Of a stretch of 64,000 nt of DNA, positions 9,640 through 11,109 are shown piece by piece. The notes under the pieces are model-generated. The model was not told the DNA's origin. It saw only the letters and a program-made list of their open reading frames with translations, and did no database searches. Source of the stretch: Gemmatimonadales bacterium (GTDB lineage: Bacteria > Gemmatimonadota > Gemmatimonadetes > Gemmatimonadales > GWC2-71-9); assembly GCA_019637315.1 (NCBI GenBank), contig JAHBVU010000008.1, positions 62,001 through 126,000 of the forward strand. The letters are read 5' to 3'. The stretch's first letter is position 1. Each line of letters starts with the position of its first letter. The position numbers and the translations under genes were made by a program.

Positions 9640-11109
9640 TGCGGTGCAGGTGCAGTGAATTCGGGATGCAGGTGAGTCAGAACGGGGCGTAGCGCAGCCT
9701 GGTAGCGCGCTTGCTTCGGGAGCAAGAGGTCCCGGGTTCAAATCCCGGCGCCCCGACTGATCATAAAGTGAAGCCTCATCGAACGTTACACTCGGTGGGG
9801 CTTCACCTTTTTCGATCGGTTCCTGCCCGGCAGTGTCGTTCCCAGTGACAAACGAGGTCCAGCCCAGCCGGTCTTTGAGCGCATCGAGGTGCTGATCGAT
9901 GCGGAACTCCACAACATCCGAGCGATGACGTACCGTGCCCAAGTGCGAATAGACTTTCTCGACCATCTCTGTTGAGCCGTGGCCCATTTCACGGCTCACG
10001 GTGTAGACGCTGACCGGCGCCCCGCGGTCAAGCGTCTGGAGTCGCGCCGCACAGTAAGCATGACGGAACATCCGGGCGTTAATCTCTCGCGGCTTCCAGC
10101 CCGCCCGCACCGCAACCCGATCCACCATTGGGCGAATCTCACGGAGCGGCTGCTCGCGGCCGGCCACGAACGACGGAAAAAGCAGCGACCCGCCCCGCAG
10201 CATGCGCGGACCGAACAAGTAGACACGCAGAATCGCCTCGAGCTGCGGCCACAAGGGCACGACCCGCCACGACGCCTCCGTCTTGAGCCGATCGCGCCAA
10301 CGGTTGGCCCGGAAGGTGACGGTTTGACGATCGAGGCTCACGTCGTCCAACTCCAGCCCCAGCACTTCACCACGTCGGCCGCCGGTCAGCGCCAGAGTCG
10401 CGAGGAGCGGCCAGACAAAGCCTGCATCGAAGCCGGCCGCGAATGGGGTGGTCGGGGTGGGTACCGTCCGGGCACTCTCGAGCAACAACGCCACGTCGTG
10501 TGCTTCGAGCCAGGCAGCTGTGCGCTGCGGCTTAGGTGGCTTGTCCGAGAACGACGCGACGGGATTGAAGCCGGGTGGAACGTGCTCAGCTTCTTGCGCC
10601 AACCGATAGAGGTTCGACAGCGTAAACAAGTGGCGCCTAACGCTATCGGCCGAGAAGGGCTTGCCGCGCACCGAGTCAGCATTGTGCAGCAAGTGCGAGG
10701 ACCAGGCGCGCACATCCGACACCCGGATCGCATCGAGCGGTCGATCAGCCCCAAGAAATGCCACCGCGCGCTCGAGGAATTTCTGACACGCCTTGAGCCA
10801 GTCGACCGTCACGTTACCAGTCTGCTTTTTAGCGATCAGATAGTCGCGCGCGAACTCCGCCAGCGTGATGACATCGGCCTTGCCCGTAAGCGCTCGGCGT
10901 TTACGAGCTGCCTCGAGCTCTTCAAGCCGGCGGAGCGCCAGACGGAGCGCCAGATCCGGATCCGAGGTCGCAAACCGCTCGCCAAGCGGGATCAGCGGCT
11001 CACGCGTTCCTCCCACGTCGGAATAGTCGCGGAAGTCTCCATAGGCCCGTCGCGCCCCGCCCTGGCGGCGCCAATACACGCGAGACTGGCGCTTCCGCGG
11101 TGTCATCAT
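9598..11109 (-). CDS. Tyrosine recombinase (integrase)
   Basis: Site-specific integrase of the island, 503 codons in the integrated state. The catalytic domain has R245 (TGGRRGE), a likely catalytic Lys near 276, R349 in NARMFRH, H377 (MGHGS) and the nucleophile Y387 (VYSHL). The usual first His of the HxxR box is Arg346. A SAM-like N-terminal DNA-binding domain lies at about 85-175. Residues 448-465 are encoded by the att core, so everything after 465 is chromosomal tRNA-region sequence. In the excised circle the frame would instead end after 15 other residues (480 total). The catalytic part is unaffected. Confidence 0.93.
   Translation of the reverse strand: MMTPRKRQSRVYWRRQGGARRAYGDFRDYSDVGGTREPLIPLGERFATSDPDLALRLALRRLEELEAARKRRALTGKADVITLAEFARDYLIAKKQTGNVTVDWLKACQKFLERAVAFLGADRPLDAIRVSDVRAWSSHLLHNADSVRGKPFSADSVRRHLFTLSNLYRLAQEAEHVPPGFNPVASFSDKPPKPQRTAAWLEAHDVALLLESARTVPTPTTPFAAGFDAGFVWPLLATLALTGGRRGEVLGLELDDVSLDRQTVTFRANRWRDRLKTEASWRVVPLWPQLEAILRVYLFGPRMLRGGSLLFPSFVAGREQPLREIRPMVDRVAVRAGWKPREINARMFRHAYCAARLQTLDRGAPVSVYTVSREMGHGSTEMVEKVYSHLGTVRHRSDVVEFRIDQHLDALKDRLGWTSFVTGNDTAGQEPIEKGEAPPSVTFDEASLYDQSGRRDLNPGPLAPEASALPGCATPRSDSPASRIHCTCTARARRDSNPQPSDP
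9683..9756 (+). tRNA. tRNA-Pro (CGG), integration target
   Basis: 74 nt. The acceptor CGGGGCG pairs with CGCCCCG, discriminator A; the anticodon loop TTCGGGA gives CGG. The 3' part from the anticodon loop on (9715-9756) is duplicated at 29039-29080, showing that this gene is the attachment site of the island to its right. The gene remains intact because the element restores the 3' half. Confidence 0.97.
9715..9768 (+). repeat. attL core, 54 bp
   Basis: Runs from the tRNA-Pro anticodon loop to 12 bp past the tRNA end. It is identical over 54 bp to 29039-29092. The base before it (C here, A at the right copy) and the base after it (T here, C there) differ, fixing the ends. Confidence 0.95.
9768..9812 (+). 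terminator. Element-borne terminator of tRNA-Pro
   Basis: Stem 9768-9782 (GTGAAGCCTCATCGA) pairs along all 15 positions with 9792-9806, using two G-U pairs. The loop is 9 nt and T5 follows at 9808-9812. It lies just after tRNA-Pro but inside the integrase coding region on the other strand. It replaces the chromosomal terminator, which is now 19 kb away at 29093-29136. Confidence 0.8.

What the first reader, a model, noticed from the sequence alone, without database searches (positions are those of the whole stretch)
9768..9812. The element carries a mimic of the tRNA-Pro terminator inside its integrase gene
The chromosomal terminator (29093-29136, 17-bp perfect stem) is displaced 19 kb by insertion. 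The element supplies its own 15-bp hairpin with a T5 tract at the same distance from the tRNA, matching 36 of 44 bases. One stem pair has changed on both sides (T-A versus C-G), which suggests selection for pairing. The same bases code for integrase residues on the other strand. Restoring the tRNA 3' end is common; restoring its terminator as well is rarely noted.
Basis: partly seen in the sequence, partly recalled or inferred. Interest (0 to 1): 0.72.

Follow-up and report, generated by a model that had tools for sequence, protein, structure and literature searches.

The report
Island brings its own tRNA terminator
A mobile DNA island inserted at the end of a tRNA gene carries, just past the tRNA end that it restores, a hairpin that looks like a transcription stop signal, and many related islands at other tRNA genes do the same with different sequences, so the occupied tRNA gene probably keeps a working end.

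Summary
The hairpin is real: 9768-9806, 15 pairs, then C and T5; z -5.5. It matches 29093-29136 in 36 of 44 bases. The core claim, that the island supplies a terminator-like hairpin right after the tRNA end, is supported and general: 19 of 25 tRNA-facing ends in this integrase clade (3% of 500 shuffles) and 12 of 18 in a second group (5 of 216 shuffles) have one. Sequences differ between islands. In G330 and a G039 tandem array, one tRNA 3' half is followed by two and three unrelated hairpins.

The 29-kb hairpin is probably not chromosomal: arm-type sites of a G004-like island follow it, congeners carry other terminators, and host synteny resumes only at about 31.5 kb. It looks like the left end of an earlier island, which explains the similarity. 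The coding overlap looks incidental: in 13 of 19 hairpin-bearing ends the integrase stops before the hairpin.

Mycobacteriophage CrimD has the same layout. Termination itself is untested.

The parts
9683..9757 (+). intact tRNA-Pro(cgg), the target gene; its 3' half comes from the island
   Evidence: ARAGORN
9715..9768 (+). left copy of the 54-base exact att repeat, from the anticodon loop to the base of the hairpin
   Evidence: read; BLAST
9768..9812 (+). island-borne terminator-like hairpin (9768-9806) with T5 tract (9808-9812)
   Evidence: fold z -5.5; 3 of 400 shuffles reach its score
9831..9852 (+). arm-type direct repeat, type A, left (P' side); binding by the integrase is inferred
   Evidence: 0.00 expected
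9598..11109 (-). open frame of the tyrosine integrase; the part conserved in the clade ends near 9865, the rest runs through arm repeats, hairpin and antisense tRNA
11113..11493 (-). small helix-turn-helix protein, possible excisionase
   Evidence: PF12728; weak phrog excisionase matches
28643..28662 (+). arm-type direct repeat, type B (G004-like)
28914..28935 (+). arm-type direct repeat, type A, right (P side)
28975..29048 (+). right end of the island; 81% like 28704-28777
29039..29092 (+). right copy of the 54-base att repeat (tRNA-Pro 3' half)
29092..29136 (+). second hairpin (29092-29130) with T-rich tail; read here as the left end of an earlier island
   Evidence: z -8.2; aligns to the G004 island end
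29156..29175 (+). arm-type direct repeat, type B, next to the second hairpin
29176..31537 (.). stretch absent from this place in congeners (two open frames)
31538..33040 (+). gene that directly follows tRNA-Pro(cgg) in congeners; host synteny resumes here

Best explanation
The island's attP carries, in this order, the tRNA 3' half (core), an intrinsic transcription terminator and the integrase arm-type sites, next to an integrase gene that points back at the tRNA. Crossover at the anticodon loop swaps in both the tRNA 3' half and the terminator, so the tRNA-Pro transcript still ends at its usual distance (T5 at 9808-9812) instead of running antisense into the integrase. Shown: the repeat, the hairpin, the arm-type repeats, recurrence of this order in relatives at other tRNAs, and unrelated hairpins after identical tRNA halves. 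Inferred: that the hairpin terminates in the cell, that the repeats bind the integrase, the crossover point, and the benefit. The hairpin at 29,093 is the same part of an earlier related island, left behind by tandem insertion.
For: Hairpin z -5.5. 19 of 25 tRNA-facing ends of the clade score above -20 against 3% of 500 shuffles; 12 of 18 ends of a second integrase group against 5 of 216. Among ends with a hairpin the tRNA strand outscores the other strand in 17 of 19 and 12 of 12. G330: island hairpin and displaced hairpin are unrelated after a 50-base identical repeat. G039: three copies of a 48-base tRNA half, each with a different hairpin. Free tRNAs last in their cluster have one in 26 of 38, tRNAs followed by a tRNA in 3 of 67. 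CrimD has the same order.
Against: No transcript data. 6 of 25 and 6 of 18 ends have no hairpin above -20. E. coli argU-intD, also convergent, has none. The window hairpin scores -16, under the usual 0, and almost the same on the other strand (-20). The cut at -20 was chosen after seeing the scores.
Confidence: 0.75

Rival explanations
1. Passive capture: the hairpin is a host tRNA terminator picked up with the tRNA 3' half when an ancestor changed target, and is not kept by selection.
For: Many targets in the clade, so target changes happen; hairpins resemble ordinary tRNA terminators of the phylum.
Against: In G330 and G039 island and host-side hairpins are unrelated; the hairpin persists in divergent islands. 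Capture from an unsampled host cannot be excluded, and capture plus selection is possible.
Confidence: 0.3
2. One reading: 29093-29136 is the native chromosomal terminator and the island copied or mimics it.
For: It lies on the host side of the right att copy and has the stronger stem.
Against: Type-B arm sites follow it; its flank aligns to G004's island end; congeners' terminators differ and host synteny resumes only at about 31.5 kb.
Confidence: 0.13
3. The hairpin ends the integrase message, or both converging messages, rather than the tRNA transcript.
For: It lies between converging genes; in the window both strands score alike (-16 and -20), and in a few relatives too (L058, L160, L184).
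Against: Strand bias toward the tRNA in 17 of 19 and 12 of 12 hairpin-bearing ends; in the window the integrase frame has no stop before the hairpin.
Confidence: 0.15
4. The hairpin is a DNA structure or site needed for recombination, not a terminator.
For: It lies between core and arm sites at a steady place.
Against: 12 of 43 ends do without it, sequences are not shared, and the T-rich side is on the tRNA strand.
Confidence: 0.07

Closest known systems
attP of Cluster K1 mycobacteriophages such as CrimD (PMC3203893; legend and section 14 read)
   Same: A putative stem-loop terminator lies between the attP core (3' end of an RNA gene) and the arm sites; in CrimD it begins 9 bases after the tmRNA end and scores 29.
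   Different: Target is tmRNA, the integrase points away from it, and the paper gives it one line in a legend without asking what it does.
ICEKp1 and similar ICEs (PMC13023037; passages read)
   Same: Insertion at a tRNA 3' end displaces the host terminator.
   Different: ICEKp1 brings none; its co-oriented integrase gene uses the tRNA promoter. Here the integrase is convergent and a terminator is supplied.
Convergent tRNA-integrase pairs ('OC' shape, PMC2951348; passages read)
   Same: Same gene orientation as here.
   Different: Terminators were not discussed in the passages seen; its example argU-intD has no such hairpin.

Membership tests
Tyrosine-integrase island at a tRNA gene | integrase of the phage integrase family next to the tRNA | tested here: met
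   PF00589 E 2e-8; phrog_1
Tyrosine-integrase island at a tRNA gene | tRNA 3' part repeated at the far end | tested here: met
   9715-9768 = 29039-29092
Tyrosine-integrase island at a tRNA gene | arm-type repeats on both sides of the core | tested here: met
   9831-9852 and 28914-28935; binding not testable here
Tyrosine-integrase island at a tRNA gene | excision and integration in the cell | not testable with these tools
   needs PCR for the circle and the empty site
CrimD-like attP with terminator between core and arm sites | hairpin with T tract between core and arm repeats, on the strand of the RNA gene | tested here: met
   9768-9812 between 9757 and 9831; CrimD itself scored
CrimD-like attP with terminator between core and arm sites | termination of the RNA gene's transcript | not testable with these tools
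   no transcript data here or in the passages read
ICEKp1-like terminator displacement with tRNA-driven integrase | integrase co-oriented with the tRNA | tested here: not met
   tRNA on plus, integrase on minus

The most novel reading that the evidence does not exclude
A terminator is a regular, replaceable module of attP in tRNA-targeting islands whose integrase points at the tRNA, kept by selection for tRNA output or against antisense to the integrase; tandem islands therefore leave a series of different terminators behind copies of one tRNA 3' half.
Probability: 0.45. Interest if true: 0.6.

Novelty: new member of a known kind. Interest (0 to 1): 0.45.

Why it matters
It is well known that islands restore the tRNA they enter. 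If they also restore its terminator, entry is less costly than displaced-terminator models such as ICEKp1 suggest, and a testable question follows: when does an island block tRNA transcription and when does it use it. The hairpin plus arm repeats also mark the ends of decayed islands whose integrase is gone, as at 29,093 here.

Tried and rejected
Rejected: chance hairpin (3 of 400 shuffles reach its terminator score; 0 of 200 fold as well). Rejected: covariation as the main proof; three aligned copies give 2 pairs changed on both sides, reached by 55 of 500 shuffles. Rejected: the 29-kb hairpin as ancestral host DNA (see report). Rejected: selection on the integrase tail; window versus G004 26 non-silent and 17 silent codon changes in 65 codons, L068 versus L137 17 and 13; these 65 codons include part of the conserved end.

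Tried without gain: the genome-contig scan found 2 loci, both from same-genus relatives already in hand; a leuX query against phages did not settle whether the leuX hairpin is host or island DNA; right att copies were sought in the stretches held for 24 of the 25 first-group loci and found for the window, G330 and G324. An early hairpin finder missed stems with bulges and was replaced; the next one had a minimum length of 20 and missed the 18-base leuX hairpin; rescoring with 18 left the first-group counts unchanged. A first alignment was off by one and gave 14 of 44, corrected. The terminator score is a formula recalled from memory (d'Aubenton-Carafa) with a simplified tail term; the cut at -20 was set after seeing the scores.

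Not in print? Searches gave only the CrimD legend as a close statement. Williams 2002 is not held, and most subscription papers are missing, so this is weak.

Full report
Setting. The window lies in a Gemmatimonadota genome (G000; phylum taken from record titles of same-genus relatives). tRNA-Pro(cgg) at 9683-9757 is the last of six clustered tRNAs. An island follows, with a tyrosine integrase on the minus strand pointing at the tRNA (PF00589; phrog_1). An exact repeat of 54 bases that starts in the anticodon loop recurs at 29039-29092.

The hairpin. 9768-9806 folds into 15 pairs with a 9-base loop, followed by C and T5; MFE -24.9, z -5.5. The 29092-29130 hairpin has 17 pairs, MFE -33.1, z -8.2. 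They share 36 of 44 bases; one pair changed on both sides, three on one side with pairing kept, two lost in the left copy. The left hairpin's terminator score is -16; 3 of 400 shuffles reach it. On the opposite strand the same hairpin scores -20, so in the window alone polarity rests on the T5 tract.

What the 29-kb hairpin is. In the three congeners where both genes lie on one contig (G003, G004, G005), tRNA-Pro is followed within about 150 bases by the gene that in the window starts at 31538. In the window 2.4 kb lie between. The protein at 29196-30344 has only distant matches in relatives (9 of 41 genomes including its own; best 34% outside G000). The four congener tRNA-Pro(cgg) sites read carry unrelated terminators (L064, L074, L075, L076). 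The hairpin and its flank align with the island end of G004, which sits at tRNA-Arg(ccg), and carry the same arm-type repeat, at 29156-29175; the pattern GGGTRACGYTCCGGGYAACA occurs twice in the window with 0.02 expected. The present island has its own repeat type at 9831-9852 and 28914-28935. So the 29-kb hairpin is most likely the left end of an earlier island related to that of G004. This is inference: an island-free strain was not found, and no other tRNA-Pro 3' copy was seen near 31.5 kb.

Relatives. Searches of 395, 102 and 394 genomes (overlapping draws) and fetched stretches gave 73 distinct C-terminal integrase loci. 45 have no facing tRNA within 900 bases, 3 have one too far off, 25 have one near. 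In 19 of these 25 a hairpin scores above -20, in 13 above 0; 500 shuffles give 3% and 0.2%; the opposite strand gives 9 and 4 of 25. The tRNAs of the 19 are Pro, Arg, Ala, Gly, Met, Val and Gln, and the hairpin sequences differ. One of the 19 (L166) has a long imperfect stem rather than the usual compact one. Arm-type repeats follow; a strict pattern finds them in 13 of 25 ends (it misses the window's own), against 2 of 125 control tRNAs, one of which is the G004 island itself.

A second group. G004 has another tyrosine integrase at tRNA-Pro(tgg) (L065). Of 395 genomes 120 match it. Loci were held for 30 of the many matches; 18 of the 30 have a facing tRNA. After adding L219 and dropping one distant tRNA, 12 of 18 score above -20 (one of them, L205, at the cut) and 7 above 0; shuffles 5 and 4 of 216. 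Six have none. Where a hairpin is present the tRNA strand outscores the other strand in 17 of 19 (first group) and 12 of 12 (second); over all ends 20 of 25 and 14 of 18.

Controls. tRNAs last in their cluster: 26 of 38 above -20, 16 above 0; tRNAs followed by another tRNA: 3 and 2 of 67. So occupied tRNAs keep a terminator about as often as other cluster-ending tRNAs. At least two of the 38 are themselves occupied (L010, L064 tRNA-Arg), which blurs the comparison a little. E. coli K-12: argU-intD (convergent) has none, argW-intS none, leuX is followed by a short hairpin and a T run of unsettled origin.

Cases with more than one att copy. G330, tRNA-Gly: island hairpin (score 46) and displaced hairpin (13) are unrelated after a 50-base identical repeat. 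G039, tRNA-Pro: three copies of an identical 48-base tRNA half, each followed by a different hairpin (scores 5, 39, 23). G027: two copies with near-identical hairpins. Against a simple rule: G186's right copy (-44) and G324's right copy (-51) have no terminator, and of G041's three copies two have none and one is weak (-30).

Coding overlap. The window frame runs through the hairpin into antisense tRNA, as in four other ends with a usual hairpin (L069, L068, L137, L078); in 13 of 19 hairpin-bearing ends the stop comes before the hairpin. Codon changes in the tail show no silent excess. In the circular form the frame would end differently. The overlap is best read as a lost stop codon; whether the tail is made is unknown.

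Mechanism. Crossover in the core brings in tRNA 3' half plus terminator. Likely benefit: normal ending of the tRNA transcript and no strong antisense into the integrase. Shown: order of parts, recurrence, strand bias. Inferred: termination, benefit, crossover point, arm binding.

Known ground. [quoted passage not shown] scoring the record I found it 9 bases after the tmRNA end, score 29. ICEKp1 does the opposite: it displaces the terminator and uses the tRNA promoter (PMC13023037, passages). Hence a new member of a known kind, with a wider pattern than the passages seen describe.

Noticed in passing
28643-28777 and 28914-29048: The island's right end holds two related units, each an arm-type repeat (types B and A) followed by an 81%-identical 74-base stretch that ends at the start of the att core. 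The type-B unit lies left of the type-A unit, which simple tandem insertion does not explain.
   Followed up: partly
L220 (G039:C12:340200-343300): Two tRNA-Pro 3' halves lie 2.3 kb apart, some 67 kb from the intact tRNA, each with its own hairpin: a tandem array with a small remnant much like 29.1-31.5 kb in the window.
   Followed up: partly
L064 2582-2591: The G004 integrase is split between two frames, so that copy is broken or misread.
   Followed up: no
15031-19284 and 20602-22416 (minus): Large open frames of the island (1417 and 604 codons) have no Pfam match at E 0.01, and the first none in PHROGs at 0.001.
   Followed up: no
L116 (G267, tRNA-Arg tct): A GTGCCAACAGTG-like arm-type unit is repeated about five times in a row and the usual hairpin is missing.
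   Followed up: no
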